The position numbers and the translations under genes are program-made. A model generated the notes under the pieces. The model was not told the origin of the DNA. It worked only from the letters and a program-made list of their open reading frames with translations, and ran no database searches. Of a stretch of DNA of 64,000 bases, positions 7,468-29,468 are shown one piece after another. Source of the stretch: Isoetes taiwanensis (Eukaryota; Streptophyta; Lycopodiopsida; Isoetales; Isoetaceae). The DNA is taken from contig JAJEKV010000184.1 of the NCBI GenBank assembly GCA_021234155.1, positions 434,001 to 498,000 on the forward strand. Direction: 5' to 3'. The number at the start of each line of letters is the position of its first letter. Position 1 is the first letter of the stretch.

Positions 7468-7562
7468 AGGGGTAACCGATTTGGGACCCCTTTCTGTTCT
7501 TGGCAGGGCAATTTCGCGCCCTTGCCAAGAACAGAAAGGGGGACCAGATCGGTTACCCCTAC
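7468..7562. repeat. Long hairpin with about 41-bp arms
   Basis: The left arm (7468-7508) and right arm (7520-7560) are reverse complements apart from a few mismatches. They share ggggtaaccgat, ccctttctgttcttggca and aggg, around an 11-base loop containing atttcgcg. Similar attgta sequence continues just outside both arms. This is a foldback or MITE-like structure, or an inverted-repeat small RNA precursor. Confidence 0.8.
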
Positions 7563-11850: not shown

Positions 11851-11859
11851 GCCTTATTT

Positions 11860-12262
11860 GAAAAAAAAATGGCTAAACTATGGCCTTTTTTGGGCTAAAA
11901 AAAATAAAATTTTAGCCAAGTCTATTTCACGCCCCATCTCCATTTTGTCCGACTTTAGCTAATCGCAAGAAAGTGTAACTGCCAAAATTTGGAAAGTTTA
12001 GCCAAAACTTAGAAGCTTTTACGTCAAGCTTTAGTGTACTTTAGCCAAATTATCCTATCGCCTTTATATTTATTGTGGTCAGTTAATATTTAGATCTTGA
12101 ATTAGTGCAAAATAGTCAAAAGATAGAATATTTTTCTTCAAAGAAATAATAGTTTAGCCAAAGGAAAGAAAGTACAGGTGGCAAAATTTAGAAAGTTTAG
12201 CTAAAAAATAGAAGCTCTCACCTCAGCTTTTGGCATACTTTAGCCAAGTCTATTTCACCACT
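11860..12262. repeat. Degenerate direct duplication containing tttagcca words
   Basis: The phrases tagccaagtctatttcac (near 11915 and 12240), ggcaaaatttagaaagttta/gccaaaatttggaaagttta and agaagctyttacstcaagctt recur in the same order at about 11910-12060 and 12130-12262. Units are about 160-200 bp and diverged. No coding content. Confidence 0.5.
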
Positions 12263-12374: not shown

Positions 12375-13199
12375 TCATTCTAGAGCATTATTAAATTCAT
12401 ATTCTTCCATAAGATTGAACAAGCCAATTATGTCTTCTCTTTCTTTCAACACTTCTCTAATGTACGAACTCAAGGTATGAGCAGGAATATCAAACAACTC
12501 CTTCAAGGTAGACATGTAAATTCCATGCTTGACCCTTATATGTTCATAAGAATAGCATTCCAATAAAGCATGCTGTTCTGTCTCTATCTTTGGGTCCAGA
12601 CAACCAGGACAAAACCTCTCCTCACGAGCTAACCCATGCATTCTACCAGTCTCAATATGTAAAGTATGGGATGACAATCTGAGCTTCGAGATTGCCATTC
12701 GTTTCTTTCTGTTGATATGAGAGGCTAAGTAAGCTTGAGCGGTATAATCATTCAGATCATTTATCTCTGCTAGATATGACCTTTTCTTCGTATCACCGTC
12801 TGCATTTAACTGCCACATTTTTTTAACTGTTATGCATGTGACTTGTTCATGTACTTCCTTAAACTTTGTTGACGTTGGCCACATCCCATGTCCAAGCCAT
12901 CTAGCTGCCCATCTTCTTATATCAGCCTGCCATCCTCTTTCTCTTGACTGTTCAAATGCCAACCTGGGCCATCTATCCAAGTCCATGACCAAAATTCTAT
13001 TTACATAGGTGATGGTTCTGCAAAGCGCCTCTACCTCTAAGGGCAGTAAGCCTGCTTCAGCAAGGAGCATGCAATACGGTGTTTGAGATTTCACACCCAA
13101 TTCCCAGAGGAGAAACCTTTTTTGAATTTTTTCAATCTCTTGCCAGCATTTTTTAGAAAGTCCGGGCCCCCAGATTGGGCTGCCATACAAAACTATCAA
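12375..13199 (-). pseudogene. LINE ORF2 C-terminal part with Cys-x2-Cys...His zinc region
   Basis: 274-aa frame downstream of the RT core. It starts MIVLYGSPIWGPGLSKKCW, matching the YGs..W....K..IE..Q..FL.. region after RT thumb domains. Near its end it has FCPGCLDPKIETEQHALLEC, the C-x2-C...H...C pattern of LINE zf-RVT domains. Intact as a frame but separated from the RT frame by a disrupted stretch at 13200-13398. Confidence 0.8.
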
Positions 13200-13398
13200 G
13201 GCTTCACTCAGATCTTAAAAAGCAACTTCCTCGATTCGATTGCTCAAAATTATTCATTTTGCATTGATGCATCATATTATAATAGGCCCTAAGCCCCCTG
13301 AGGCTCTCTTCCTGCCAAGCAAAATCCACCTATAGTCATTTGTAACATCTATGCCAAGATACTTATATTCTTTTACTGTTCCAAAGGAATTCCTCCGA

Positions 13399-14262
13399 TC
13401 AAAATGGTTGAGTCACGCCACCAACAATCATTACCTTGGATTTAGTCGCATTAATTTGCATACTATTATGCTCACAAAACTCCTGTAGCACATCCAAGTG
13501 TTGTTGAAGCCCATTGGCAGTTTTGAAAATCAAAACTATGTCATCCGCAAAAAGTAATAATTGCACAATATACTTACCTAGTTTTGCTCCAACTCCACCA
13601 AGTCTCGCCAACCATCCCTCCAAATCATCTATGAATAACCCAAAAAGCGTTGGTGAACAAGGACATCCCTGTTTAACCCCAATGGTATTATCAATGCATT
13701 CGAGTCCCGTAAAAGGAAAAGAGAGCTCAACCAGGTCTTTGTTATAAAGACAAGCAACTGCTTGCCTAATTTCCAATGGTACCGCTGCAGGTTCTAACCG
13801 CGAGGCCGGATCTTTTCTTTTACCTTGTCAAATGCTTTCGCTAGATCTATAAAGGCAATATATCTCTTATTATTTGATCCCTTTATACCTCGACCAACAC
13901 TCTCAAAGTAGCCGATGGTCAAGAGTAGAGTATGCTTCTCTAAACCTCGCTTGCCCAATTGCTTTCAAAGATGAGAGTCCGCCCAATCAGTAAGCTTTTT
14001 TTCAACCATTGCGGCAAATAGTTTAGCAAATATACTACCCACAAGAATTGTGCGGTAGTTTTTAATTTCATCTCTGTCTCCAGATTTATATATCTGGATA
14101 ACTCTATTCAAGCACCAATCTTGTGGAAAATGTCCTGTTAAAAGAGCTTCATTACAGATTTCAGCTAAGAGGGCATGAAGTGACGCACCTCCCCATTTTA
14201 ACAATTCACCTGACATACCATTAGAGTCACTAGCCCGGCCATTGCCCATAGCCTTCAAGGCT
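13399..14262 (-). pseudogene. LINE reverse transcriptase core, frame-broken
   Basis: The upstream half (14258-13965) has GNGRASDSNGMSGELLKWGG, the N-terminal RT block, and IQIYKSGDRDEIKNYRTI. The downstream half (13776-13399) has IGVKQGCPCSPTLFGLFIDD and LLLFADDIVLIF with the catalytic FADD. The middle (about 13780-13960) still reads IAFIDLAKAFDKV but in shifted frames. The RT catalytic Asp residues therefore survive, but the ORF does not. Confidence 0.85.
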
Positions 14263-14272
14263 TCTTGTACAT

Positions 14273-15797
14273 TAAACCATCATTCATTTAAATTAAGAAT
14301 ATGTCTTAATATTGGGAAGTTTAAATTTTTTCTATTTCTGCCCCCGTCCGTCTTTTCCCCTGCTTTTTGCCCCGTCCGTCCGCCTATTCATTTGCCTTGC
14401 GGTCCGCCTATTTATTTGCCTCGTCCATTCCTCACTTTTTCTTTCCTTTTTTTTTTCCTCATTTATTTCTTCCAACGCAGTACAAGATTGCGCTTCTTTC
14501 CCTAATTTTTTCCATGGAAGACGGGCTTCTTCTTCTTCTGACTTCTTCAGCTTCTTCTTCTTCGCAGACACCATTCCATCTATGGCGAGTTTCGTAAGCT
14601 TCAAGAAATTTGCAAAAGCTATGTTCTCTGCAGGGTTTTTGTTCTCTGCAAAAGCTATGTTCTCTGCAAAAGCCTTCTACTTGCAATTTGTGGATTTTTT
14701 GCAGAGTTTGGCCTACGCATGCATCTCAGCCGATACATCACAAGCCGACTCTAGATTTGTAGAAGGGATACATCACAAGCCGACTGCATATAGTCATTCT
14801 TCTGTTGTTTTTCTTTTGAACAGCAATATAATCCCAGCTTCACCCATCTTCAATATTTTGTTTCTAAAATTTGTCTTTGGTCGGTGCTATGGCAAACAGT
14901 TAAAGCAGATGGGATGTATGGACGCTAGAGCTTATGATGCAGAGAGAAAGCAGAGAGAAAGCAGTGGCACTATGGAATGGAAACTTCAGGTTTTACAAAA
15001 AAAATTGCCATTGCAATCTGCATTTCAAAAGCCTCTCAGATGCATTATATTAGTTTAATGATGATCTAAGGTACTGTGGGCTATACAGGACATGCAAAAG
15101 GCCAGTGTTTCATGACCAGTGTTCAGGCAAATCCATATTTTGTGGATGAAAATGAGTAGAATGAGATCTTATTTCAGTCTGCCATAGAAGCTATTAACTA
15201 AAAATTGCAGAAACAGAACTATTAGAGCTTGCAGAGGTTAGACGGTTGTCTAGAGATAACCAAATTCGAAGTTGTTTTATGCTTATGAAAGCTTTGTTAT
15301 GCTTGAGAAATCGCGCCAAGCGCGATTTTATTCTGTCTTCACTTTTACCAATTGTCTCGTTTATCATATTTTAGAAGATATCACTTTTATTAGTGGATAG
15401 ATAATCCAACTTTATTTGGCTAAAATACAATAACTCTAGTTTTAAGATCGTTAAAAAATGTGAATATTGGAGTGATTTGATGTTTGACACACCTTATTAC
15501 TTGCTCAATTTTGTAAAAAAAATGATCATTTCTCTTGTGATGTTAATAAAGAATTTGTTATTTCAAGTATATTTGTTGTTAAATTCTATCTAATCTATTG
15601 ATGTTAATTTCAAGCAAACAAGGCCTTTCCTTGCCTTATTTAATGTAAATGCGATAAAATACTGAAATATTCAACATAAACTATAGTTTTGTAAATGTAC
15701 AAAATAGAATTAAAAAGCACTAAATGCCCTAAAAATAATGCTTATCTGGCGCGATTTTGGAATAGACATAATCCCAAAATATATGAATGATGGTTAT
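14273..15797. mobile_element. Insertion splitting the LINE, bounded by 13-bp inverted repeat
   Basis: The LINE reading breaks at aaccatcattcat (about 14274) and resumes at atgaatgatggtt (about 15784). These two words are exact reverse complements and bound the intervening DNA. The interior has a T/C-rich ORF (14312-15058) with an internal repeat of gcaaaagctatgttctctg (about 14613-14675), but no domain. The rest to 15780 is AT-rich and non-coding. It looks like a small non-autonomous DNA element; the target duplication could not be settled. Confidence 0.45.
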
Positions 15798-15840
15798 TAT
15801 GTCCTGTAAAAATTGGAGTGGCGTCTCCCTCACAAACCAT

Positions 15841-17005
15841 CTAGTCCATATGTGGCGTATTGTATAAATCTTGTACCCATGCCAGCAATTCCTTTCTAGA
15901 AATATCACCCGTCAAGTTTTGCTTTTTAGACCGATTAAAAAACCTTTTTGGATCTATCTCCATTTCATGCATAAGCATTTCAGTATGTTTTCTCATCCAA
16001 GCTCGTTTTTTTCGCTTGATAAGCTTTTTATAATGAACAACGTTATCTGGATCCTTGGATTGTTTCCATGTCTCTTTTGCTGATCTGCAATCCAGGTCAA
16101 ACCACTTACTATTTGCCCATTTCTGTCTCTTTGGCTTGGTAAGCCCAAATATGGACTGTGCTGCCTGCAAAGTGAGATTCATAAGAGTTTTGCTTCTGTC
16201 TTCTAGTGACCCTTGCCACTGTAACTCCATCAACTTGGCATCTAAGGCTTCTTTATAATCAGTTGCACGTCTATAACATAGCTTCAGCCTTGGTGGTGGT
16301 ACTGCCGCTGGCACTTTTCTGTTAGCTTTTACATCCAATGTAAATACATAAGGAATATGATCAGAATCGATATTCCTATCTAACATGGACAAATTCGTCA
16401 CTAGATGTAATGCATTTGGATCACCAATAAGGTATCGATTGTGTTGCTACCATTTGATTGGTAGTACGTGAATCCACTAGAGTTGGGAAATCTAGTAATC
16501 CCATTGTAATGAAATTAAACGCCTCACATAATGCAATTATATGCTTGCCCATCTTATTAATAACCATATCTGCTGTCTTGCGAGGCCAACTAGCTTGTAA
16601 ATCTGATTGTTCTACTAGCCATAATGGGTTCTCTTCCTCAGATAGAAGAAAGGCTTGCCTATTGCTCACACGACCATTAAGGTCTCCTGCAATAAACACC
16701 ATACCAGATTCTCTATATGTTGAGATGTCGGCTGCAAGATGTATAAAAGGATCGTCAGCACATAAGCCATCTGTAGAATAAACAGGTGCTGGATAAGGCT
16801 CAAGAGGAGCAAAATAAGCAAGTGCCACATAAATTTCAACAGAGTTGTCCTTTAACTTCAGCCAAATATACTGTGAGAATTTATCTTTGCTAACAACTGA
16901 AACTGTCTTTTGTAGATCCTTTTTCACATAGCACGCAACTCCACCCCATCCCCTTTTGCTATTGCCCAATTCATTCCAGACTGAGTCCAACAGTCTAATC
17001 CACAT
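15841..17005 (-). pseudogene. LINE apurinic-like endonuclease (EEP fold), N-terminally truncated
   Basis: The minus-strand frames read RGWGGVACYVKKDL, then VFIAGDLNGRVS (the catalytic aGDfN block) and, in the next frame, NIDSDHIPYVF (the SDH catalytic motif). This is the exonuclease-endonuclease-phosphatase domain that nicks target DNA in L1-type LINEs. The frame shifts near 16410 between the two parts. The N-terminal Asn/Glu motifs are missing, so the element is 5'-truncated. The linker after SDH (TKPKRQKWANSKWFDLDCRS) matches the usual link to RT. Confidence 0.85.
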
Positions 17006-17330
17006 GCCGACCTTATTAAAGTTTGAGTGACCATACGTAACTTATTAGCAGCAGTCAGAACAAAGTCATATGCGAGAACCTTTACTTCAGCTAGATCTAT
17101 GACAGCAGTGCTTGCTTTGGACTTTGCTCTCTTTCCCACTCCTGTTTTTACCATCTCCAAAGTATAACTCCCACTGAAAGCATTGGCATCATTCGTTCTC
17201 ATCCAGTGCACTTTTAATTGAGTGGGAATTCCATCCTCTCTTGTTACCTCCAGTACTTTAGCTAGCCAGAATGGCTTCCCAGATTCATCATTATCAGCTG
17301 GGACAGCTATGAGCATTCCTTTCTGAATCT
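17005..17330 (-). pseudogene. C-terminal domain of the transposase, beyond the hairpin
   Basis: The frame reads EIQKGMLIAVPADNDESGKP, FWLAKVLEVTREDG, QLKVHWMRTND and IDLAEVKVLAYDFVLTAANK. This small folded domain is the usual tail of the same transposase family. Upstream of the hairpin the minus strand ends YTGPRRTAQQVAR, and the sense of the protein resumes here, which shows that the hairpin inserted into an already existing gene. The LINE starts within a few bases of the end of this domain. Confidence 0.6.
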
Positions 17331-17515
17331 CTACTACAAAAATAGGTAGAAATGGCACAAAAGTGACGTTTATCCTCCGCCTTTTTACCGGGCATAAACG
17401 TCACTTTTGTGCCATTTATGACGTTTGTGCTCCCCAAATGGCACAAAAGTGACATTTATGCCCGGTAAAAAGGCGGAGGATAAATGTCACTTTTGTGCCA
17501 TTTCTACCTATCTCG
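17328..17515. mobile_element. Compound hairpin element (nested inverted repeats) inside the transposase
   Basis: Two arms of about 75 bases are near-perfect reverse complements around a 20-base spacer carrying ggggagcacaaac on the minus strand. Each arm is itself palindromic: atggcacaaaagtgac ... gtcacttttgtgccat around cctccgcctttttaccggg. The left outer edge reads ctactacaaaaatagg, similar to CACTA-type termini, and the right edge ends ctacctat. A short tctc/ctc lies on both sides. A partial second copy is at 29379-29468. Confidence 0.75.
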
Positions 17516-20102
17516 AGCAACTTGTTGTGCCGTGCGTCTGGGGCCAGTGTACATGACTCAGTCATCTTCATCTGAGCTAGCCAATATCTCTACATGTTCC
17601 TCTTGATTCTCAACTTGCACAGGGAGAGTTTGCCTAGATGGCCATTTGAATAACGTTCTTGACCTTGTAATGAAGCTTGCAACATGTCACGTTGTTAGAA
17701 AAACCGAGGCCACCATAAAGCATCTGCCTCCCCAAAGTGGTTAGAGCAGGACTGAATGCTTGTCTCAATATAATCCAATGATTTGTTTGAGTCAAATGCT
17801 CTTCCCTCCTTTTTACTCTTTGTGATTTCTTTCAAGCTTTTTAGAGGCATTTGCTCTGAAGAGAGCATGGAACTAGTATTGGGAATGGTGCGAATGAATT
17901 GAATACTGGCTGGCTTTGGCCACTAACGCAAGGATGTGGCATATTTCTTTCCTTGTAAGATGGCCTTGCCATCTACAAGTGAAATTTTGATCCCCGATCT
18001 TTGAAATGTAATATTTCTCAAGGGCTCAATAGCACAAAGTGACCCAGTTGATCTCTCCGAAAAATCCATTCCTTGAAATCATAAGTTTCTTCCAATAACT
18101 CGATGTCTGGACGAGGATTGTAGGAATCTTGGATAACCTCAATCATTGCTGGTAGGCTGAGAGCTTTTTTTCGAGCAAGACGTTTAGAGAACCCTCTTGA
18201 ACATCCGATCAATTTGATCGTCTCTCAGATGACCAACAAGCAGAAAACCAATCTTCACCTTCTTGAAGATTTGTTTCTCTACTAGCATAGCACGATAAGC
18301 AAACAACGCTGATTCTTATTTTCTCTTGTCGTGTTGTCTAGTCAAGATATATAGAACCCGGTGGTATATGTTCTAGATTGGAAAGAAGCTTATTCAATAT
18401 TGTGATAGTGAGATTTGGATCAGCATGAATGTTTGGATAATTCAAGAATGCCTTGCAAGATAGTTTTCCATTAAATACCATAGCACCAACAACATGCAGG
18501 TGTATGAAATCTTCTTCAGCAGCATCCTTGGGCACATTGACAAAATGTGGTAGGGTGGTCTTCTTCTGGTCCATTCCATCAATAACAACCGATATGTAGT
18601 TGAGTGGTTGTTCCGGTAACTTTCTTCCTATGTTTTGTCAATTTTCTCCTTTCCAAAGATTGTTGTTCTCTGTGCTTGTTCAATTTCTCTTTCAATGCAT
18701 CTGAAATGAAAACGTGTTTAGGAAAGAACCTACTTTTAAGTAGAACTAGGCAAGAGAACACGTTTTGGAAGCTTACTTTTAGTGTGAAGTGTCCTTGCAT
18801 TTTGTCTCTGAGCTTTCAATTTAGAGCATGTAGCACAAACAGACATCCGATGCTTTCTAGGAATGGACACGCAAGAAAACTCTTTTTTCCAGAGCACAGT
18901 AAAGTAAGAGTAGCAGACATGGCGTTCTCCAGCCTCAACACACATGTCCTTATAATTATCGTAGACTTCACGTTTCGTGAAGTTGTCACTCAAGTGGTAC
19001 ATAGGGCTGTTAGGGAGTTTCTCGCAAGACTCCTTAAAGAAACCTTCCATCTAAGAAACACATTGAAGGGCATGAACTCTGGATATACCTCCTGAGTGGC
19101 AGTAGTCATTAATGCCTGGATTCTTGTCAAGCCTTTTCTTCAGGCGGTCAAGTCGTCTGCTGCCTAAGGCATGTATCAATTTAAAGGTTGTTTGACAGAC
19201 GGTGTGGCCACCAGCTGTGTAAGTAAACCTTTCACCATAATCTGGCCTAATATTGAAGGCTAAGTAGCCCCTTTGATCTAGTAGAGTCATTGAACTGTAA
19301 CTATCACGAATCAACCTCAATTCCTTTAGTCTAATCTTAAGCAAACAACGTTGAGAACAACAGTGCTTTGTATGTGTTGCCCTCAAGTGAGCCTCGTCCA
19401 TGAGTTTCTTTCTTCTTTGGGTTGTACATGCTTTCTTGTGTAAGTTTCGCTTAAGGTTTTTACTTGTAGGAGCTTTGAATTCGAACATAGAGTCTTGTGG
19501 CTTTGGTAGGCCCTCGTCTAAGAGATCAACATGAGGTGTACTAGTAGATGCTGAGAGGTTTGATGTGGGCAAGTTCTGGGGGGAGGTGCTTTCCCTCTCT
19601 GCAGGAAAAAAGTAATCGAGGTTGGTGGCGTAATTGACCCGCTCACGAGTCGTGAGAACAACACGGGGGAGTTGCGCGTGGAAGGCGACCGCTCCCACTT
19701 GTTGTAGTACCAATTAGCGAATTGGATGGAGCCGCGTGATTTGCATCCGGGGAGGCAGCCTACGGTGGACTATGGGAGGCGATACTAAAACGAATCGAGG
19801 AGGTAGTCTGAGCTCTGAGCCCATGTGGTGGAGTAAAACGCATTGGTGGGGAAAACGACGTTCGAGGAGCCGGGTGTGGTGGAGTAAATTGACTGGTGGT
19901 GGAAGCCGGTGGTCGTGGTTGAGTAAACTCAACAGGCTGGGGGTTTGTATATCGGAGGTAGAATATTCGTGGCTACTTCACGTGTGTGCGGTGAGGAGGT
20001 GTGAAAGTCATTGCGGGGAGGAAGCCTACGAGCAAGGTGAGTTGGAGGCTCTGCGGTTCTTTTCTCTCGAGCCATACTTTCGAAAAGTTAAGCGTCCTGC
20101 AA

Positions 20103-20271
20103 GGTATAAATTTATAGGACGAGAAGAACGCAGGCGGTATAAATTTATCTGAGAGATGGTATGAATTTTTCGGGAAAGGGAAACTTAAAGGCGGCCGTAT
20201 AAATTTATCTGAGATGGTATAAATTTATCTGAGAGGAGGGCAACATAGAACGAAACGGTATAAATTTATCA
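20103..20271. repeat. Palindrome array A (TATAAATTTATA), 5-6 copies
   Basis: Copies near 20103, 20136, 20158 (degenerate), 20196, 20216 and 20257. Most have a good left half (GGTATAAATTTAT) and a right half altered to ct or ca. Spacing varies from 20 to 41 bp. It lies on the transposase side of the divergent intergenic region. Confidence 0.8.
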
Positions 20272-20549
20272 CGAAAACTCACGGAACACTTGTATTGGAA
20301 ACTTTATGGAGAAACGCTATCTGAAAACGGCTTAGCGAGAGGTACTTAAGCCCGGCGGCCGCCACCCTATTTTCTATATCTGCGCAAATCCGGTCGAAGG
20401 CGGCTCAGCGATCGCGGCTATATACCCCTTATTTGCTCTGGAGGAACGTCTATCTCTGGCGAGTCCATACTGTCATGGCCACGTAAGTCTACTATCCGTA
20501 CTGTTCTAGTTTCTCTTTTGTTTTAATCTGTTAGAGTGTAAGCACCCAC

Positions 20550-20775
20550 GGTATAAATTTATACCGATATGGCTCTGGAACAATATAAATTTATACGACC
20601 CGAGCACGAGCGGTATAAATTTATACCGTTCGAACGATCGATATAAATTTATCACCAGTGTTTTGAGGCGGTATAAATTTATCTGCTTCGAGCACAGCGG
20701 TATAAATTTATACCGATCGGTGTTACAGAGCGGTATAAATTTATACCGCTTCGTGCTTTCCATATAAATTTATCT
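20550..20775. repeat. Palindrome array B, 8 copies at about 30-bp spacing
   Basis: Copies centred near 20557, 20589, 20619, 20647, 20677, 20706, 20739 and 20768; steps are 32, 30, 28, 30, 29, 33 and 29. Four copies are the perfect 16-mer GGTATAAATTTATACC; the others keep the TATAAATTTAT core. Spacers differ in sequence, so spacing is conserved better than spacer content. It lies on the methyltransferase side of the intergenic region. Confidence 0.9.
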
Positions 20776-20978
20776 GGTTTCAAAACCATTTCGGAATATT
20801 GGTGTCCAGTGCTTAAGAAATGGTCCTGAACCTTAATATTTGAGTAATATTGTTGTGTTTTAAGCTTAAATGACACAAATAAAGTGTTAATTTAGTGTGA
20901 ATTTCATGGTATTTCAGCCACTGTTTTTACAGTTAATGTGTTTCAAAAGGTTGAGAAAGGTTCTGTTTCTTGCGTAAA

Positions 20979-21384
20979 AATGGGTTTTTTTACGCTTTTT
21001 CAACCCGGGATCAAGTTTACGAAAGCCCAATCATCAAAGGCGGCACCACTAGACCCACGGACTTATGGCCCGAAAGACCCGGGGGCGTGGTACGTCCACA
21101 GGGGCGCAAGAGAAAGCAAACCCAATGAGGTGTACCTTTACTTGTGTCATCAATCAGGGAAGGGCAAGTTCAAGTCTGATGATTATTACCCTGCTGGCGA
21201 AGTTGTAACACTAGTTACCACAGAGAACGATGATGAACTTTTAATGAAGTGCATGCATGACAACGGGGAAGTCTACTATGTTCTGAATAGTAGAATGCTT
21301 AGAATAAGCATGTGCAAGCCCAAAGACGTGTATGATTACATAGCGGAAAATTACAAGAACGGCTTGTATACAACAATATTGTAA
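20979..21384 (+). pseudogene. Methyltransferase gene exon 1, N-terminal domain
   Basis: The likely start is the Met at 20979 (MGFFTLFQPGIKFTK); the longer open frame begins upstream without ATG. It contains LDPRTYGPKDPGAWYVHRGA, YLCHQSGKGKFKSDDYYPAG and DNGEVYYVLNSRMLRISM, then ends at a stop after GLYTTIL. A donor is not obvious at its 3' end (gtaaaa near 21382 is the best candidate, out of phase with exon 2). The domain is globular in composition but not recognised. Confidence 0.55.
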
Positions 21385-21437
21385 AAGAAAGTAACATAAA
21401 AAAATGTGAGACTAGCAAGTTATGGCGACTCAAAGTG

Positions 21438-21453
21438 GGTATAAATTTATACC
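21438..21453. repeat. Palindrome copy C, intron 1
   Basis: Single perfect GGTATAAATTTATACC in the short intron between exons 1 and 2, about 30 bases before the acceptor cattacag. Confidence 0.9.
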
Positions 21454-21484
21454 GTCATTCTCCTAACATAACCCTGCATTACAG

Positions 21485-22441
21485 GATATAGTGGACATTT
21501 TGATGTCAGTAGTGCTTTGTGAACAAAAGGTGTTGGTCAAAGGTCTATGGTACCCCATTCCTAACGAAGAGGAAGAGAAGGACCAGGAAATAGAAGAAGA
21601 AGAGGAAGAGGAGGAACCAGTGGTAACAAAGGGGAGGAGCAAGAGAGCTGCACTGGTAACAGATACACAGCCTCCCACCAAAAAAAGGTCTAGAACCACA
21701 AAGACCTTGACTATAGAAGAGTCAGCAGAAGCTCTTCAGAAGGCTCCTGGAGCAGATATTGTTGTGAAGCCCGCAGAGAAGTCAAGTGCTATTCTAAAAC
21801 GGGTTAATGACACTAAACTGCTCAAGCAAACTATTTCTTTGACATTGAGCACTATTAAGAGGCCACCTAAAAATGAAGATGGGGTCAGAGTGTTACAGGT
21901 CCGGAAGCTGTACGCGGCACATGTGGCTATACTGAAGCAAAGAATGAGAAGGAATCCTCATGCCCATGTGTCGCAACTAGTTGTAATGGTTGACAGGAGT
22001 CAGTGCAACCAATTAAAAGATTACAAGAAGGCTGACTTCGAAGATTACACCTACTATGTTCTTGGAGGCACACATAGTTACAAGGCAAGGAAAGAACTAG
22101 CAAAGGAAGAAAGCCGTAACGAAGTGTGGAAGAGCATGGAAGCGCATATATATGTGGGTGTAACAGATGAAGAAGCAAAAGTCATTGCCGTGAGTCATAG
22201 TCTCGACAATGACTTCAGATTAAAAATGAGTTTAATAGACAAGATCCGTTTCATGCACCGTGACTACGTGGAGTTCAAACAAGTGCATGGAGAGGACTTT
22301 AAAAAGCAAAAGAACAAGCTCCAGGAGCTTCGAGAAGCCTGTGTGACAGAGTGCTGCCTCAGTTATGATTCTGATAAGAAGCCCATTATGGCTGTGAAAC
22401 AATACGATAACTACTTTCAGCTCGTTTTCAAAGATGGTCAA
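21485..22441 (+). pseudogene. Methyltransferase gene exon 2: acidic linker and ParB-like domain
   Basis: Begins after cattacag at 21484 and ends at caa|gtaagt at 22441. The first part has a Glu run, then a Lys/Arg-rich segment with PPTKKRSRTTK, probably nuclear localising. The second part carries LVVMVDRSQCNQLKDY, YYVLGGTHSYKARKELAKEE and HIYVGVTDEEAKVIAVSHSL. The V.GG.HR..A and bond to a deeA...A..HN segment is the ParB/Srx nuclease-like fold as used in ParB-methylase fusions. ParB proteins bind palindromic parS sites and spread along DNA using CTP; whether this one keeps those residues is not clear from sequence. The exon is open over about 310 codons. Confidence 0.6.
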
Positions 22442-22505
22442 GTAAGTAAATGCTTTCATTCTGTCTTTTGTAGTATGTTTAGCGTGGTTACAAGTGCCCG
22501 GGCAC

Positions 22506-22635
22506 GGTATAAATTTATACCGTGCCCAGGTCACGGTATTAATTTAGACAGTGCCCGGACACGGTATAAATTTATACCGTGCCCAGGTCACGGTATAAAT
22601 TTATACCGTGCCCGGGCATGGTATAAATTTATACC
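22506..22635. repeat. Palindrome array D, 5 copies at 28-29 bp, intron 2
   Basis: Centres near 22513, 22542 (degenerate, GGTATTAATTTAGAC), 22570, 22599 and 22627; steps 29, 28, 29, 28. The spacers are also palindrome-like (gtgcccrgg), so the whole array is a tandem repeat of about 28.5 bp. It sits entirely in the intron between 22442 and 22729. Confidence 0.92.
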
Positions 22636-22729
22636 GTGACTAGTCACCGCGCGCATTTAGACTGTAGACTATGCAACAAATTCTCTTACGTCATTCAACA
22701 CTAAACTACTTGCGTTTGTCTATTTACAG

Positions 22730-22785
22730 GTGTGGGATCTTCAAGAGAGAATTATAGGAACATGCTTTAGTAGTGAAAACACGAC
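22730..22785 (+). pseudogene. Methyltransferase gene exon 3 start, cut by an insertion
   Basis: After ttacag at 22729 the frame continues VWDLQERIIGTCFSSENT, joining in phase to the ...FKDGQ end of exon 2, and then meets a stop near 22803. Protein-like sense resumes only near 23470. Confidence 0.5.
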
Positions 22786-23465
22786 GTTGGCCACAACCAC
22801 CTAGGCGTCTTCCCCAAATAATACATTCAAATTGCTTTGGATCATAGTCATCATCTGCAAATTCATAGCCTTCATCAAGACCCTCAATTTGGCCTATGAA
22901 AGTGGACGTAGACGATGATATAGTGATGCGCCGCTTTGTCCTTGATGCCGTAGGTCCCAAGAACTCATTTATTCTCTTTTTGTGAAGCCCCTTCCATGCT
23001 GCATAAATTTGATGTTTGGCATCAACAACTACTTTTACACATCTGAATAATTTTGCACAACTGAATAGGGTAAAAACTAACCTTAATTGATGAAAGTAAA
23101 GCTTAGATTGTAGATGGGAATGGATCTCCATCTCAATCAAATCGTGAATACAAATCGGGAGTGCTCTGCAAATGACAATAAAATATAATATTAAAATTAT
23201 CATCCCATTAATATTCAGAGACTAACATCCCATTTATATTTATATTCACATGAATAACGAAACAAATGCATACGAGAAGAACATGAAAAACACAGGCTCG
23301 ACAGGGTAGAATAAACTAAACCTGTATGAAAGGGCGGTTTCGGATGCTAGCTCGGTCAAATTAAAAAAAATATATCAAACCCTAATCCTAGAGGACTATA
23401 AGTGGCGATTCTTAGATGGACATGTGATCTTAGATGTAATATGGCCAACCCCTTACCCATTAAAG
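22780..23465 (-). mobile_element. Insertion inside methyltransferase exon 3, with minus-strand ORF remnant
   Basis: About 0.7 kb of unrelated DNA. On the minus strand a frame reads VVVDAKHQIYAAWKGLHKKR, EFLGPTASRTKRRITISSST and then an acidic EGLDEGYEFADDDYDPKQ. It is protein-like, but I recognise no family. Boundaries are uncertain because no clear target duplication was found. Right part (23205-23465) is AT-rich. Confidence 0.35.
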
Positions 23466-23469
23466 TTTA

Positions 23470-23922
23470 CCTTAGGTTCTAATTGGCTACCTCGATAAGT
23501 TTTTTCCCACGCACAAAAAATCGAATTGGCCACACCCTGTGCCTAGCCGAATTTATAAATATCGAATTGGCTACTAAACGAGTAAAACGTACAAATTCGT
23601 GTTTTGAACTGGCCATTACCCTCCGGTCAGGGCATGAACGTATCCTACTCTGGCGTAGCCAACCATTTCTGCAAAAATATGAATGTGTGGCCAACTGGCC
23701 CGCCGGGGCCACTAAAAAATACCCTGATGGTGAGCTTAAAGAACAAGCTAGCTCCGCAGGAAAGAAACCAAAAAAAGGTGGTGAATCAAAACAAAAAAAT
23801 ATGAGCATTGTACCCTGGACGCAGTTACAGGGTCTAAAAAGCAAAGAAATTTTTGTTCGCCTCTTGGAAAAAGTCGTGGCCAAGGAATTCACATTAGACG
23901 AGATGGCCAAGGAAGCTAAGAC
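23470..23922 (+). pseudogene. Methyltransferase gene, linker exon between ParB and catalytic domains
   Basis: The frame carries HERILLWRSQPFLQKYECVA and a basic KKPKKGGESKQKNMSIVPW segment, then EIFVRLLEKVVAKEFTLDEM. It ends at a gtaagc donor after aagac (23922). The helical end continues in phase in the next exon (T-QKDIVTCQAEL). Confidence 0.5.
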
Positions 23923-23991
23923 GTAAGCCTCATTTGCTATGTCATGTTTTTTTCCACCTTTTTTTGTCTTACAACATGTTTCTCTTTGCAG

Positions 23992-24130
23992 TCAGAAAGA
24001 CATTGTCACCTGCCAGGCCGAGTTGATGAAGCAGCTAAACCTAGAGGACTGGGAGGAGTGCAAGCTTTTATACCCAAGTTGTACCACAGATAGTATCATC
24101 AGAGAGCACGCTGTTAAGTTCAGTGGCTCG
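23992..24130 (+). pseudogene. Methyltransferase gene, short helical exon
   Basis: The acceptor ctttgcag ends at 23991, and the donor tcg|gtaagt is at 24130. The peptide reads QKDIVTCQAELMKQLNLEDW then CKLLYPSCTTDSIIREHAVK. Phase is consistent with the previous exon. Confidence 0.55.
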
Positions 24131-24237
24131 GTAAGTTTTGCCGAAAATATGTTCTCTATTTGTGCCTTTGTCTCACAGTATTCTTACAGAACAAGAAGAA
24201 GAGGCTACCCACTTGATTTTTAAACCTAGTTCGTAGG

Positions 24238-24632
24238 GCCAAGGAGGAGAGGCAGAGACTTAAGGCAATCGAACAGGGAAAAGAGGTCGCCACTAGCAGT
24301 TTTGACACTACTTATGAGAGATTTACAACATTTGGTCAGGACTGCTTATACAGAGTTGTTCGGGGTGATTGCACGAGGCTGGGGACACTTTTAGACAAGC
24401 AAAATTTTACATTATGCATTGCAGATATTCCCTATGGCTTCAAAATTAAGGATAACGCTTTTGACGAGGAGGCTTTCACGCACGTGCAAGTCCGTTCTTT
24501 TTTGGATGGCCTGAAGGAAGTCACCATATCTGCTAACTGGAGGGTCATCATTTTCCATTCCGACCTACAGACGATGTCGGTGCTTAAACCTATGGGAGCG
24601 GTCTGTAATGCCGGCTTCGAAAACTGTGTTTG
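24238..24632 (+). pseudogene. Methyltransferase catalytic exon with DxPYG motif
   Basis: The frame reads AKEERQRLKAIEQGKEVATS, FTTFGQDCLYRVVRGDCTRL, LCIADIPYGFKIKDNAFDEE and ANWRVIIFHSDLQTMSVLKP, ending ...FENCVW at a gtaagt donor inside the Trp codon. ADIPYG is the catalytic DPPY-type motif of N6-adenine/N4-cytosine methyltransferases; the second residue is Ile, as in several transposon-linked members. The acceptor near 24236 is one base out of phase, suggesting a small indel. Confidence 0.65.
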
Positions 24633-24673
24633 GTAAGTTTTACATTCAACGCTTTTCTTTTTAGTAACTCCAC

Positions 24674-24804
24674 GGTATAAATTTATACCACAACTGCCTT
24701 AAGGTTTAAATTTAAATGGCAAGGCAATGTTTGTATAAATTTATACGGCTTGCCGCCGTGGTATAAATTTATACAGCAAGGCAACCCTGGTATAAATTTA
24801 TACC
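24674..24804. repeat. Palindrome array E, 5 copies at 28-29 bp, intron
   Basis: Centres near 24681, 24710 (degenerate, GGTTTAAATTTAAATG), 24739, 24767 and 24796; steps 29, 29, 28, 29. It is wholly inside the intron between donor 24633 and acceptor 24876. Confidence 0.92.
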
Positions 24805-24876
24805 GCCACACTACTGGGCTAACTTATTTTCCTTGTTTTCATTCTACTAATATTTAATTGCTGTATTGTTTGGCAG

Positions 24877-24949
24877 GCTTAAAACAAACGTCAAGGGTCA
24901 TGGTGGTGGTCCGCGCTTAGTGAGTTGTTTTGAGCATCCTATATTATAA
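24877..24949 (+). pseudogene. Methyltransferase gene, exon before the large insertion
   Basis: After tttggcag at 24876 the frame reads LKTNVKGHGGGPRLVSCFEH and then stops at 24949. The W.KTN...GPRL....E segment is normal for this methyltransferase type shortly after the DxPYG motif. The downstream half is found only at 28767, about 3.8 kb away. Confidence 0.6.
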
Positions 24950-25082
24950 TGTTATGTAATGGACCACGCCCTAGATCTGACGGTGAGAATTCAATTTTTC
25001 GAAGGGACGATGGAGATTCAACATAAAAAGAGGTCAATCATTTCGTTGCCCTATCGAAACAGAGCAGAGCAGAGAAGCGGTG

Positions 25083-25235
25083 ATGGCTTCAGGGTTTGCG
25101 AGGGGAGCATGCTGCCTTCGAGCACTGCGGGCACCTCCTTTAGTATCGAGACATGAATCAGTTGATGCTGAATGCCGCTTTATTTTTACAATAATACAGA
25201 GCCCAGATAGTGATTTTTGCAGATGGTTCAGATGA
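25083..25235 (+). pseudogene. Possible first exon of a captured gene (organelle-transit-like)
   Basis: The short ATG frame MASGFARGACCLRALRAPPL, followed by a Ser/Arg-containing segment and ECRFIFTIIQ, resembles a mitochondrial presequence in composition. It runs to a stop after 50 residues. Following exon-like pieces on the same strand read KDYMLQERFFYGERGQRLRW and YINGHKENRRQPLFWHISKE (ending at a gtatgt donor). No protein family recognised; a decayed or captured host gene is a guess. Confidence 0.25.
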
Positions 25236-27159
25236 TCTGCATGCATTAATGGACGAGTTTCTGTTTGGCCCTATTCATCAGCTTGCAACCCAGAAATTAT
25301 ACATTGGAGAAAGCACGTTCCAAAGGACTATATGTTACAGGAAAGGTTTTTTTATGGAGAGCGAGGACAAAGATTGAGATGGGTCACGAGAGTCTGATAG
25401 AAAAATATTGGACCATCTCTGTCTCTGGAAAGAAGGAATAATCTGCGTCAATGGGTTTGAAGGCCGTGGTCCTAGATAAATCCAAGTATATGCGAACAAA
25501 GCAGCCCTCTAATCCAAACACAGGATTAAAAAAATTTGGCATGATGGCAGAGATGATCTTGGCTTTTCTTCTTCCTGCTTCAGGTAACCACACAGCGGCC
25601 ATGAATATTTTTTCAGTTGGTTCCATATGTAATCTGGCTATGGGTTCTGAATAAATGGGAAGCAAATACAGATGATTGGAAATAGCTCTGCATCCATTTG
25701 AAAATATCAAAATTATTGTGTCTTTAGGTCAAAATCATGTGAGCAAGCAACCTTTTACAGGTAAAGAATCTCTTAGCTCTTCATATTATTATTTTAAGCT
25801 CTACATATGATGGAAAAGAATACAATCGTAAAATTTAAGTTTCTATGCAAAGCTGAAGGTTAATCCATCATATATCTGCAGTGTCATCTTCTTATGTCTA
25901 CATTAATGGGCATAAAGAAAACAGAAGACAACCCCTCTTCTGGCACATATCAAAAGAGAGTATACATCAGCATATGAAGGATCTGTTGATGAATTTACAG
26001 GTATGTAAAAATGATTAAGGACCTTCAATGGTTGATCCAACTCCAGTGACGAGAGAAGAAATTCTCGCATTGTTTATAGATATATAAAATGCAATGGTTA
26101 ATTCCTGTTGTAATACTTTTTGGATGAACTAATGGTCCATTGAAGTGCAGAAAATTCTTTGGTGAATTTCATTATGTTATAGGGAATCAAACATACTCCT
26201 TTCCGGAAGTCCAGAATGACATTCTTCGTGGACTGGCATATATTCATACAAAGCCATTTCGATGGTGCAAAGGACAATCATCTTTCAGTAAGGATTTGTT
26301 TTCCAGTTTTGGATATATTTCTTGCATGCTAAATGTGTTCTACATTATTTTCAAAACTAAGATCTATTAGCATAGTTGAATTCGCATATTGGATCAAAAT
26401 GAAACGTATTTTATTCTGGGTTCTTCAGTTCATGTTTCTTTTCTAATATATATTGTCTCTTTGGATATCAAAAATGTGTGTAAAAATTCCAGATCCACTA
26501 ATTCATTTTTGTGCTTTGTTTTGTAACAAAATCAAGCCCTGCAATTATGTGTTATTCAGATCATACAGTTGATGCAGAGCGTAGATCTGCAGCACGAGCC
26601 TTTTTGAGAATGGAGGCATTCTTATAGACTCAGAAACTAAAAGAATCTTGCTTACAAAAAGTTCTTGAATCGTAAGGACTGTGCATAGTGTGTGGAAAGA
26701 TCACTGGCATGAAATTATATGACCAAAGGTAGCTGCTGCTTTGTAACTACTGCGAAAAACACTTACTCTGCAGTTGACTTACACTATATTGAAACCTTGC
26801 CTTTTCCTTTGAGCCTTATTGCACTTTGTTCTGATAGCACAAAAATGGCCTGTTGTTGCCTCATCTATCAAGTTGTTTTATCATTTAACGTAAACATAAA
26901 TCAAAACCATTTTTCCATAATAATAAGGCTGCGAGTAAAACTAAATTTCCATAGTAATAAGGTTGGAAGCAATGAAAATGTTTTTCTTTCACAACCGTTG
27001 TTGAATGCTAGAGACATATTAGCTTCATAGTCAAGTGATGTAAAAAAACAAATAGATTATGAATGATGCAAACACTATAATAGAAATTTGACTACTATGT
27101 TTTGGAGGTAGTTCATTAATAGTAATTGATTCATGAAATCTAATTGGAATTAGTTGCAA

Positions 27160-27340
27160 GAGTGCAATTCAAAGCTATTATAAAAGTAGTTAGGACAATA
27201 TGAGTTGCAATGGTACGAATCAAAGCTATTTTGAAAGTAGTTCGGACAATATTAGTTATTGTGGAGACATAGTACGAATCAAAGCTATTATGAAGGTAGT
27301 TAGGACAATATGAGTTGCAAGAGTATGAATCAAAGCTTTT
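27160..27340. repeat. Tandem repeat of about 55-65 bp (aatcaaagctattat...agttaggacaatat)
   Basis: Three to four units share aatcaaagctattwt, aaagtagttaggacaatat and agttgcaa/agttattg. The last unit is interrupted; its remainder (gtagttaggacaatattagttattcaagagac) is found at 28416 beyond the LINE, so the repeat array pre-dates the insertions. Confidence 0.75.
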
Positions 27341-27446
27341 TTTTTATATATACATATATTGAAGGAAAGGAGCATCTTACGGTGCGGCACACTCGCATGG
27401 TGAGACTTGCACTCACCGATGTCTCCCATTTGGCTATTTTTTCAAA
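27340..27446. mobile_element. Short insertion flanked by caaagct repeats
   Basis: About 105 bases starting with a T run at 27340 and including gcggcacactcgcatggtgag and cttgcactcaccgatgtctc. They are flanked on both sides by tcaaagct / caaagct, consistent with a target-site duplication of the tandem-repeat unit. The T run suggests a retroposed (polyA) element in minus orientation. Family unknown. Confidence 0.5.
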
Positions 27447-27451
27447 GCTAT

Positions 27452-28413
27452 TTTTTTTTTTTTGAAGAACTGTGCCATCAATATATTAAAAGAATGGTAA
27501 TGTTACAAAGCAAGTGAGGAGGAAGGAGAACTGCCCCAAAGAGACAGCGATACCTCGACACTCCACAACAAACTCACAGAAAAACTGCAACTCTACTGCT
27601 GTACAAACCGACCATCACCATCTACAACACCCAAGAAGTCCCGCCAAATGGCAAACTTCCGCTCTACTACTCCCGGGAACACCAGAAAGCTTTGAAATAG
27701 CTTGTACACGAGTCGAGGAATCGAGAGAGGCTGCGTCCGCTGAATCCCCCGAAAGATCCACAAACCGCCCGCCGTCAGCCACACCAACCAAACCCGCCTG
27801 CCGATGCAAGGCTTGCTGCCGCAAGAGCTGCCAAACACCGGGATACACATGAAGCGTGGCTGGCGGGCTAGTCAATCTCACCGAAATAGTGCCCTAACCC
27901 AATCCCGTGCAGCCCGCAAGTGAGGGCATAAAACCGCATAATGCTCCACAAATCACGATGAAGGCCACAACAAGGGCGAGAGGGCTCACACCCGCCTAAA
28001 CCGACTCACAAGGGCATTCACCACGTCTGGCCGGTGCACCACCTGCCACAAGCACCCTAACCCGGTGGGGGGGAAGTGAGCTCCATGTCCACGTCCAAAG
28101 CGAAGGCCATCGAGAACCCTGGGCGCAGAGACCACTTGCCTGAAGGGGGCAGTGTGTCATGAATAGCCAGCACCTGGTAACAAGACCGCACAAAGCAAGA
28201 AGACACAACATCCGGATGAACCTTCCAAACCTGCACCACCACATCATCCTGAGGGACTATAGGTATGTGTAGCGGAATACTCCCCGCCACATGCTCCCAG
28301 ATAGCCCGGTCACTGCCCCTCAGGCGAAAGCGAGCTCGAAAGAACTCCCACGAAGCTAGCTGACCACCCCAATACCAATCCTCCAAGGTGAGCACAGCAG
28401 CTCGCCTCCAACG
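27452..28413 (-). mobile_element. LINE 3' part, copy 2, 5'-truncated
   Basis: A T run near 27452-27463 (polyA of a minus-strand element) leads into the block shared with 1039-1190. Farther in, minus-strand frames read DDVVVQVWKVHPDVVSSCFV and RSCYQVLAIHDTL, matching the D.v.W....dG.FsV.S.Y..L segment that precedes the LINE zinc domain. Frames are broken. It inserted into the tandem repeat at 27160-27340, whose remainder resumes at about 28414. Confidence 0.75.
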
Positions 28414-28766
28414 GGTAGTTAGGACAATATTAGTTATTCAAGAGACATACCATATAGGAATTCCAACATGGTGACGTCAAAGACGTAGATGAAGAGATTG
28501 CAACATACATGGATTCAATTGAGCAAGTTCATTGATAGGTTCTGGGCTAAAGTTAAAGACATAAAAAGATGCAAATGAAGAGATTGCAACATACATGAAT
28601 TCAATTGAGTAAGGTCTCTGACAGGTTCTAGGCTAAAGTTACAGACATAACCAGGCTTTTCATTTACAGGTTCCCAACATTTACTAAACCCAAATGTTGC
28701 CCAGCAACGCTGGGCACCGTTTCTAGTTTTCATATAGGTTTTTACAGCGCGGACGCCAAAAAAACC

Positions 28767-29330
28767 ATGGTTCATTTCAATACGCAGAATGAGAAGACTC
28801 CTCCCTGCAATGCTTTTCAGTTCCCGGCTGTTCTGCAGAAATTAAGAGACCCACATCGACAAGGCGCTGTGGTGTCCCATTATCAGAAGCCACATCGGCT
28901 TATTAATAATTTGTCTGATGGTTTTGCCACAGAGCTGGATCTTAGATGCCTTTTTCCGATCCGGGCACCAGGTTTTCGCCCTTAGCGAGCGCAATTTTAT
29001 CTCTGTCGACATAGACCCAGATAAAGTAAGTTTCATCAGGACCGAGGATAAGCTCTTGTGAATCCTTTCACGATGAAAGCGAAGCGGGAGGCACTTATAC
29101 AGCGAATACAGCCTCCACTTACGGGGAAGAAAAAGATGAGGAGGTGGAGTTTGTGGACTTGGAGCTGTGGGTGCCCGATCCCGAAAACCGCTTGTCGGGT
29201 AGGATTGGAATCGGAAGGAGGCTGCCTCTGCTGTTGCCTCATAAGAGCCAGGATCCTAAGGGGTACGAGTCCTATGGACCGGGAAGACCACCTCCCCCAC
29301 CTCTCGATAAATTTATACGACGAGTTTTAA
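28767..29330 (+). pseudogene. Methyltransferase C-terminal half (SAM-binding) and acidic tail
   Basis: Frame 28767-28985 reads MVHFNTQNEKTPPCNAF, VLQKLRDPHRQGAVVSHY and QKPHRLINNLSDGFATE. The next frame from 28978 reads ALSERNFISVDIDPDKVSF, and a third has the acidic KDEEVEFVDLELWVPDPENR and a Pro run. QKP..L...(l/i) and gRn.i.vd.DP flank the FxGxGT SAM-binding loop in beta-class enzymes; here the loop region (about 28930-28980) still has LDL..LF but is scrambled by indels. One palindrome core (ataaatttatac, about 29307) lies near its end. Confidence 0.6.
29304..29318. repeat. Palindrome copy F, partial
   Basis: cgataaatttatacgac keeps the ATAAATTTATAC core. It is the only copy right of the 24.8-kb array and lies next to the methyltransferase C-terminal sequence, extending the palindrome-bearing element to at least this point. 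Confidence 0.6.
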
Positions 29331-29378
29331 CTACTTCCATTGTAAACTATGTGCTAAGTATTATTATAATCACTACTA

Positions 29379-29468
29379 CAAAAATAGGTAGAAATGGCAC
29401 AAAAGTGATATTTATCCTCCGCCTTTTACCGTATAAACGTCACTTTTGTGCCATTTGGGGAGCACAAA
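29379..29468. mobile_element. Half copy of the 17.3-kb hairpin element, CACTA-like edge
   Basis: It starts cactactacaaaaatagg, then repeats the arm of 17340-17515 (aatggcacaaaagtga, tatcctccgcctttta, gtcacttttgtgccat) and the loop word ggggagcacaaa, where it stops at the LTR border. The CACTACTACAAAA start is typical of CACTA (En/Spm) ends. The right half is missing because an LTR retrotransposon inserted in the loop. Confidence 0.65.

What the first reader, a model, noticed from the sequence alone, without database searches (positions are those of the whole stretch)
20103..24804. Recurring 16-bp palindrome GGTATAAATTTATACC confined to the ParB-methylase element
Seen: about 25 copies in five groups plus one stray, all between 20.1 and 29.3 kb, in the divergent intergenic region and in three introns, and none found elsewhere in the 64 kb. 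Known: bacterial ParB proteins bind 16-bp palindromic parS sites. Inference: these may be the binding or methylation sites of the ParB-methylase encoded around them, i.e. a cis-trans system within one transposon. Placement only in non-coding parts argues for selection rather than random spread.
Basis: partly seen in the sequence, partly recalled or inferred. Interest (0 to 1): 0.88.

Follow-up and report, generated by a model that had tools for sequence, protein, structure and literature searches.

The report
Transposon family's conserved palindrome arrays
A family of jumping genes in this plant genome carries its own repeated 16-letter mirror-image DNA signal in its promoter and introns, better conserved than the DNA around it, probably so that a protein made by the element can recognise and control its own copies.

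Summary
In detail: about 25 copies of the palindrome (11 exact) at 20.1-24.8 kb plus one degenerate copy at 29.3 kb. The 1.66-Gb genome holds 7218 exact copies, backward control 0. All 10 clusters among the first 50 listed places lie in one TIR transposon family: ends AACAARGTTTAAAATGAAACGCACTT, 4-bp target duplications in 4 of 5 copies with both ends, and gene-poor derivatives of about 2.2 kb that keep the array. The complete copy read (C16, 8.6 kb) carries a DUF7869 transposase and, divergently, a ParB-like/beta-class-like methyltransferase gene. The window copy is a truncated fossil. Sites lie between the genes and in three introns, mostly 32 or 28-29 bp apart, and are better conserved than their flanks (promoter 89-90% against 50-58%). 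The ParB-like region is under purifying selection. I read the arrays as binding sites of an element protein, most likely the ParB-methyltransferase, marking and de-silencing family copies, much as VANC proteins do for VANDAL transposons. No binding was tested, structure prediction failed, and the ParB assignment rests on weak profile matches.

The parts
20103..20272 (.). Transposase-side site group, 5 degenerate palindromes (TATAAATTTAT core), 33, 60, 20 and 41 bp apart
   Evidence: likely equivalent of the array mostly 21 or 41-42 bp apart just upstream of the transposase start in the C16 copy
20550..20776 (.). Main promoter array, 8 palindromes 28-33 bp apart (4 exact)
   Evidence: conserved against C16 and C4 copies 0.90/0.89 versus 0.58/0.50 for the rest
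21438..21453 (.). Single exact site in intron 1 of the ParB-methyltransferase gene
   Evidence: site present at the same place in C16 and C4 copies
22506..22635 (.). Intron 2 array, 5 palindromes 28-29 bp apart (4 exact), spacers themselves near-palindromic
   Evidence: C4 copy also has an array here, the C16 copy only one degenerate site
24674..24804 (.). Methyltransferase-intron array, 5 palindromes 28-29 bp apart (2 exact)
   Evidence: the 240-bp intron is 97-99% identical in 14 of the 39 other copies scored
29304..29319 (.). Degenerate single site 3' of the methyltransferase gene
   Evidence: C16 copy has a site at about the equivalent place
20980..21366 (+). Exon 1 of the ParB-methyltransferase gene (approximate limits; window splice donor decayed)
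   Evidence: ORF; donor inferred from C16 copy; dN/dS 0.13-0.22 in 4 of 5 alignments, the fifth saturated
21485..22441 (+). Exon 2, acidic linker plus ParB-like region (P0001)
   Evidence: PHROG ParB-like families, best E 0.0017, matched by 4 of 8 copies; Pfam ParB not matched; at least 125 loci in genome, some partial or with stops
22730..22786 (+). Exon 3, interrupted by a nested insertion (about 22787-23695)
   Evidence: limits approximate, the C16 copy aligns to 22753 and from 23726
23696..23922 (+). Continuation of the coding sequence after the nested insertion
23992..24130 (+). Exon, linker region
24190..24632 (+). Methyltransferase exon with ADIPYG motif; one in-frame TGA
   Evidence: weak alignment with CcrM
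24877..24937 (+). Methyltransferase exon, cut by a nested insertion of about 24938-28726
   Evidence: alignment of C16 copy: 8016-9390 to window 24937-23726, 7335-8016 to 29368-28727
28727..29061 (+). Methyltransferase C-terminal part (LDAFF.SG, VDIDPDKV), frameshifted
   Evidence: C16 copy reads LDAFSGSGT
18018..19713 (-). DUF7869 transposase gene pieces
   Evidence: Pfam PF25273 E 5.9e-6, 26.4 bits, cut-off 26; same gene in C16, C13, C4, first part in C14
16993..17331 (-). 3' part of the transposase gene, separated by a nested MITE; LINE begins beyond

Best explanation
The palindrome (CGGTATAAATTTATACCG with its usual flanks) is the family-specific cis site of a TIR DNA transposon. Arrays cover the shared promoter of its two divergent genes and the introns of one of them. 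Shown, in the copies sampled: family membership, position, preferred spacing, and conservation above background. Inferred: a protein encoded by the element binds the arrays cooperatively. The likeliest binder is the ParB-methyltransferase, which thereby recognises family copies, gene-poor derivatives included, and keeps them free of host silencing and expressed, perhaps by methylating or nicking them. It would thus work like the VANC anti-silencing proteins of VANDAL transposons, with a different protein and a palindromic site.
For: 7218 exact sites, 0 backward control. 2129 exact pairs with 4-34 nt gaps, 0 control. 10 of 10 sampled clusters in one family. Sites at the same non-coding places in diverged copies, with palindrome identity 0.90 versus 0.58 and 0.89 versus 0.50 outside in the promoter, and 0.94 versus 0.65 and 0.88 versus 0.57 in intron 1. 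Spacing 32 bp in 18 of 50 pairs and 28-29 bp in 13 of 50. Gene-poor derivatives keep the arrays. ParB-like region dN/dS 0.05 and 0.06 against C4 and the main C16 alignment, at dS 0.95 and 0.51, and at most 0.10 in 12 of 15 computable pairs. An unchanged site fits a binder that barely changes. VANDAL precedent: short family-specific motifs repeated in upstream regions and introns, bound by VANC (PMC5735166 passages).
Against: No binding, methylation or expression data. ParB identity is weak (best E 0.0017 in PHROGs; no Pfam ParB; no PDB hit; AlphaFold pLDDT 32 and 35). A known ParB-methylase nicks without sequence specificity. The methyltransferase exon shows dN/dS 0.49 against C16 (85 codons), i.e. 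no strong selection there, though the C-terminal piece gives 0.11 against C4. Three recent ParB pairs give 0.32-0.50, and the copies compared were chosen stop-free. The spacings show no sharp preference for the DNA helical period. The transposase core is also well conserved, so it cannot be excluded as binder. The sites contain TATA-box-like sequence on both strands, so a host factor could use them.
Confidence: 0.4

Rival explanations
1. The DUF7869 transposase binds the arrays: they are accessory sites for transposition and for repression of the shared promoter.
For: Gene-poor derivatives of about 2.2 kb keep the arrays between the two ends, as would be expected of sites needed for mobilisation in trans. 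The transposase core is conserved (93-98% in DUFc and DUFd against C16 and C13; 69% against a second, older element in C4).
Against: In the complete C16 copy the sites are not subterminal, apart from one about 0.5 kb from the left end; there are none inside the transposase gene in the window, C16 or C4 copies, while introns of the ParB-methyltransferase gene carry them. The N-terminal transposase piece is less constrained (dN/dS 0.35 against C4, 0.28 against C13; higher values against C16 and C14 are inflated by frameshifts in the copies).
Confidence: 0.24
2. A host transcription factor, or TBP itself, uses the palindromes; each contains TATAAAT on both strands, so arrays would be strong bidirectional promoters and intronic enhancers.
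For: TATAAATTTATA reads as a TATA box in both directions (sequence). The arrays surround two divergent gene starts.
Against: The flanking G and C beyond the TATA core are conserved (133 and 122 of 143 at the inner positions, 98 and 103 at the outer ones), the spacing is regular, and among the sampled clusters the sites occur only in this family, which is unusual for a host-factor site.
Confidence: 0.2
3. The palindromes are mainly the substrate of the methyltransferase, a self-mark or a restriction-like nick/methylate system, rather than regulatory sites.
For: The element encodes a beta-class-like methyltransferase beside the sites.
Against: No methylation data; CcrM-type enzymes recognise short sites (recalled), so a 16-18-bp substrate would be unusual.
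Confidence: 0.12
4. Arrays are neutral tandem expansions, self-propagating because palindromes invert and duplicate, with no trans factor.
For: Some spacers in one array are inverted copies of each other (C4 copy), so the arrays do expand by duplication with inversion.
Against: Palindromes are better conserved than spacers between diverged copies, and single sites such as the intron 1 site persist in place. Expansion alone does not explain this.
Confidence: 0.04

Closest known systems
VANDAL transposons and VANC anti-silencing proteins of Arabidopsis (PMC5735166: passages read; PMC10398659: abstract read)
   Same: A plant DNA transposon; a short motif enriched in the family; arrays in upstream regions and in introns of element genes; motif arrays grow as repeats.
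   Different: Here the motif is a 16-18-bp palindrome rather than a 9-base motif in one orientation (YAGTATTAY); the candidate protein is a ParB-like/methyltransferase fusion rather than VANC; the ends and transposase differ (DUF7869, 4-bp duplication; VANDAL's being Mutator-like is recalled). Binding and de-silencing are untested here. VANC targets diverge rapidly; this site does not among the copies compared.
Bacterial ParB-parS
   Same: A 16-bp palindrome and a ParB-like protein encoded nearby.
   Different: No helix-turn-helix, CTP site or ParA shown; many sites in arrays; an integrated transposon needs no partition; the site sequence is unlike the B. subtilis parS that I recall.
Bacterial ParB-methylases such as Bce_0392 (PMC5512222, passages read)
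   Same: ParB-like domain fused to a methyltransferase.
   Different: Bce_0392 is reported as a nonspecific nickase; this one is in a plant transposon with a conserved array of sites, and its ParB motif (GGTHSYKA) lacks the canonical arginine (motif recalled).
Spm/En TnpA subterminal repeats (recalled, no call)
   Same: Repeated short sites bound by an element protein that can also counter methylation.
   Different: TnpA sites are subterminal; these are central and intronic.
TET/JBP-encoding fungal DNA transposons (PMC12730594; title and start of abstract from the search listing only)
   Same: DNA transposons that carry a DNA-modification enzyme.
   Different: Different enzyme and host; no site arrays mentioned in what I saw.

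Membership tests
TIR DNA transposon | Terminal inverted repeats | tested here: met
   Ends found in 8 of 10 regions (C2, C5, C7, C8, C13, C16 twice, C17), both ends in 5 copies; none found in C4, C14 or the window; 979+998 genome places with at most 1 mismatch, control 0
TIR DNA transposon | Target-site duplication | tested here: met
   4-bp duplications in 4 of 5 copies with both ends; C17 does not match
TIR DNA transposon | Transposase | tested here: inconclusive
   DUF7869 match just above cut-off, 26.4 against 26 bits; that DUF7869 is a transposase domain is my inference from the element context; no activity tested
ParB/parS system | ParB-superfamily domain | tested here: inconclusive
   PHROG ParB-like families at best E 0.0017 and 0.026; Pfam ParB not matched; no PDB match; structure prediction failed
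ParB/parS system | Helix-turn-helix that reads parS | tested here: inconclusive
   Two AlphaFold runs of too low confidence
ParB/parS system | ParA partner and partition role | not tested
   No search was made for a ParA-like gene
ParB-methylase | Beta-class methyltransferase motifs behind the ParB-like domain | tested here: inconclusive
   CcrM is the second of two PDB hits at E 1.5, aligned over residues 20-220 with motif positions in register; motif LDAFSGSGT in C16 copy; Pfam gives only UPF0020 below cut-off
VANC/VANDAL-like anti-silencing | Family-specific motif repeated in upstream regions and introns | tested here: met
   family specificity tested on 10 clusters only
VANC/VANDAL-like anti-silencing | Element protein binds the motif | not testable with these tools
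   needs EMSA, DAP-seq or ChIP
VANC/VANDAL-like anti-silencing | Binding removes silencing marks from family copies | not testable with these tools
   needs methylome data with the protein expressed
VANC/VANDAL-like anti-silencing | Homology to VANC and VANDAL transposase | not tested
   No comparison made; the claim is 'works like', not 'is a'

The most novel reading that the evidence does not exclude
A eukaryotic DNA transposon family has evolved its own ParB-type address system: a ParB-methyltransferase that reads regularly spaced arrays of a 16-18-bp palindrome in the element's promoter and introns, spreads or modifies DNA from there, and so tells its own copies apart from host DNA to keep them active.
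Probability: 0.35. Interest if true: 0.9.

Novelty: new variant of a known kind. Interest (0 to 1): 0.72.

Why it matters
It offers a possible second case, with different parts, of a plant transposon that addresses its own copies by sequence. With at least 125 ParB-exon loci and 7218 sites in one genome, it makes the question of how transposons escape silencing without harming the host directly testable outside Arabidopsis. If binding is shown, it would also be a ready-made protein/site pair for sequence-specific DNA modification.

Tried and rejected
Protein relatives: none in 5.8 billion proteins for the ParB exon at E 0.001, residues 80-780 of the joined protein at E 0.01 or the 8-copy profile at E 10; none in phages, viral contigs or bacterial and archaeal genomes. 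These searches need shared exact words or close similarity, so distant relatives could be missed.

Structure: AlphaFold on one sequence and on 8 copies gave mean pLDDT 32.5 and 35.4; I used neither, and ran no fold search.

Viral contigs with two sites: 78 stretches, at most two listed matches each, and where two are listed they overlap on opposite strands; taken as chance or unrelated phages and not pursued.

Rejected: 'specific to this window' (7218 genome copies); 'parS of a partition system' (an integrated transposon needs none). 'Helical phasing' was considered: mean vector lengths were similar for all periods from 10 to 12 bp (0.46-0.53), so only preferred spacings are claimed. Methyltransferase intron more conserved than its adjacent exon (15 of 18 copies found in both capped lists): not used as evidence, because the exon has more CpG and the lists are ranked by similarity.

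Not done: covariation of site and ParB, because the fetched ParB copies are 80-85% identical to the window's and were fetched without their arrays. Family search PF25273 did not complete.
Full report
What was checked. The window carries 11 exact GGTATAAATTTATACC and 25 sites in all if degenerate ones are counted, at 20103-24804 plus one at 29304. Shuffles give a mean of 0.45 matches at up to 3 mismatches against 22 found. The window belongs to a 1.658-Gb assembly of 1110 contigs. Size and contig number nearly match the published Isoetes taiwanensis assembly (1658.30 Mb, 204 scaffolds plus 909 contigs; PMC8566536, passages read). The species name is my inference.

Genome count. The exact 16-mer occurs 7218 times, and its backward control 0 times. 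Two exact sites separated by 4-34 nt occur 2129 times, control 0. The palindrome is therefore common, so the question is what it is common in.

The family. I fetched about 10 kb on each side of all 10 clusters that make up the first 50 listed places. Two (C16:309500 region, C4) carry ParB, methyltransferase and transposase matches. C13 carries transposase and exon 1. C14 carries the first transposase part. C2 and C7 show exon 1-like matches (C2 only 26 residues). C5, C8, C16:155100 and C17 show no element gene near the cluster (C17 has one weak transposase match about 6 kb away). Comparison of the ten with each other and with the window and a search for their ends show shared terminal repeats AACAARGTTTAAAATGAAACGCACTTATTT in eight of the ten regions. 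C4 and C14 have none found but have genes. So 10 of 10 clusters belong to one family. Five copies show both ends; four have equal 4-bp flanks (AAAT, TTGA, ATAG, ACCC) and C17 has not.

Copy number. The terminal 24-mer occurs at 979 + 998 places with at most 1 mismatch, control 0. Among the first 100 termini there are 23 convergent pairs under 20 kb: 13 of 8.4-9.4 kb, 4 of about 2.2 kb, 6 others. Of the 7 such pairs on contigs covered by the list, 6 hold at least one exact site pair; C24:166603-176034 does not. Of the 8 exact termini on the contigs covered by the site list, 7 have exact sites within about 5 kb and C9 has none listed. These two comparisons were made by eye.

Anatomy. In the C16 copy (8.6 kb, C16:316416-325016) the order is left end, ParB-methyltransferase gene on the minus strand, arrays, DUF7869 transposase on the plus strand, right end; its frames are also interrupted. 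It is the only copy with both ends and both genes that I read. Sites lie in a promoter array mostly 29-34 bp apart, a second array mostly 21 or 41-42 bp apart just before the transposase start, intron 1, the methyltransferase intron, and 3' of the gene. The window copy has the same layout but is a fossil. No end was found in the window at up to 7 mismatches. A LINE and a MITE interrupt the transposase; two insertions interrupt the methyltransferase gene; one TGA and one frameshift are present.

Conservation. Between the window and the C16 and C4 copies, palindrome columns are 0.90 and 0.89 identical in the promoter array against 0.58 and 0.50 elsewhere; in intron 1, 0.94 and 0.88 against 0.65 and 0.57; in the methyltransferase intron, 0.99 and 0.89 against 0.96 and 0.79, with gaps set aside. 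The aligner favours conserved words, so the numbers lean towards the sites.

Spacing and a second motif. Among the first 50 exact pairs, 18 are 32 bp apart, 13 are 28-29 and 7 are 30-31. In the sampled regions many other spacings are near 21, 42, 52 and 61-63. A test of periods from 9.5 to 12 bp showed no sharp optimum at the helical repeat (mean vector 0.41-0.53), so helical phasing is not shown. In the 18 sixteen-nt spacers the exact centre reads GNNC (GTTC, GAAC, GTCC, GGAC) in 14, against a mean of 1.0 and a maximum of 7 in 2000 shuffles; the base next to the palindrome is usually G (40 of 50) or, on the other side, C (46 of 50). These spacers come partly from related arrays and are not independent.

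The proteins. The ParB-like exon has at least 125 loci, some partial and many with stops (128 matches, 3936 first-look candidates, 125 scored). Its ParB identity rests on PHROG families (best E 0.0017, 4 of 8 copies) and on a motif read by eye; Pfam, PDB and AlphaFold gave no support. I chose 7 stop-free copies of the list for comparison, which biases towards selection. Of 28 pairs, 13 were saturated at synonymous sites. Of the other 15, 12 had dN/dS 0.02-0.10, and three recent pairs 0.32-0.50. Against C4 and C16 the ParB region gives 0.05 and 0.06 (a 69-residue linker piece 0.24), exon 1 gives 0.13-0.22, the methyltransferase exon 0.49 (C16) and its C-terminal piece 0.11 (C4), and the transposase pieces with computable values 0.07-0.79, several of them inflated by frameshifts in the copies compared. 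So strong constraint is shown for the ParB region, not for the methyltransferase exon. The methyltransferase aligns with CcrM only at E 1.5, but its motif positions fall in register.

Association with the gene. 40 copies of the promoter region were scored, the window's included; 18 have a listed ParB exon 430-710 bp downstream on the same strand, and 22 have a listed ParB or methyltransferase part. The lists are capped, so these are lower bounds. The remaining 18 may be derivatives or diverged copies; this was not tested.

Interpretation. Shown for the copies sampled: a family-specific, regularly spaced and conserved site array in promoter and introns, in a transposon whose second gene is a ParB-like/methyltransferase fusion with a strongly constrained ParB region. 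Inferred: a trans-acting protein reads it. I prefer the ParB-methyltransferase, because the ParB core is the most constrained part at comparable synonymous divergence and its gene carries the intron arrays, while exon 1 (down to 38% identity, in a decayed copy) and the N-terminal transposase piece (82% and 73% in the cleaner comparisons) have diverged more. The transposase core is also conserved and remains a candidate; on re-checking the frameshift effect I lowered the leading odds from 0.42 to 0.40 and raised the transposase from 0.22 to 0.24. The layout is very close to that of VANC-target motifs in VANDAL21: upstream regions and introns of element genes, repeat growth (PMC5735166 passages; PMC10398659 abstract). 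I therefore propose anti-silencing or self-recognition as the function. This is by analogy only.

Literature. Searches on ParB with moss, land plants, DNA transposon and lycophyte terms listed 9 of 9, 20 of 65, 15 of 120 and 0 papers; none of the listed titles or opening abstract lines describes such an element, and I did not read those papers for it. DUF7869 and the 16-mer itself gave no paper. The library holds open-licence papers only.

Noticed in passing
spacers of promoter arrays, e.g. window 20566-20731 and G000 places: A second short motif GNNC sits exactly half-way between palindromes 32 bp apart (14 of 18 spacers).
   Followed up: partly
window 16993-19713 versus 21485-24632: The two halves of the element differ in divergence from the C16 copy: transposase core dS about 0.09-0.10, ParB region dS 0.51. 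Recombination between copies, perhaps through the array region, is one explanation.
   Followed up: no
window 24637-24876: The methyltransferase intron with its array is more conserved than its adjacent exon in 15 of 18 copies found in both lists; CpG content differs, so this may be decay bias.
   Followed up: partly
window 17326-17511 and 29368-29460: A MITE with 76-bp inverted arms, start near CTACTACAAAAA, and a second partial copy at 29368 where the match to the C16 relative ends.
   Followed up: no
window 12375-17041: Decayed LINE (reverse transcriptase match, weak endonuclease match) inserted in the 3' part of the transposase gene.
   Followed up: no
window about 22787-23695: Insertion in exon 3 with ends TTGGCCACA and TGTGGCCAA, overlapping a minus-strand open frame of 165 aa (22724-23221) without Pfam match.
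   Followed up: no
window 8596-10329: Open receptor-like kinase gene on the minus strand (Pfam kinase 8.3e-45).
   Followed up: no
C4 copy, rel. 11613-11910: Some spacers within one array are inverted copies of each other, as if array units flip around the palindromes.
   Followed up: no
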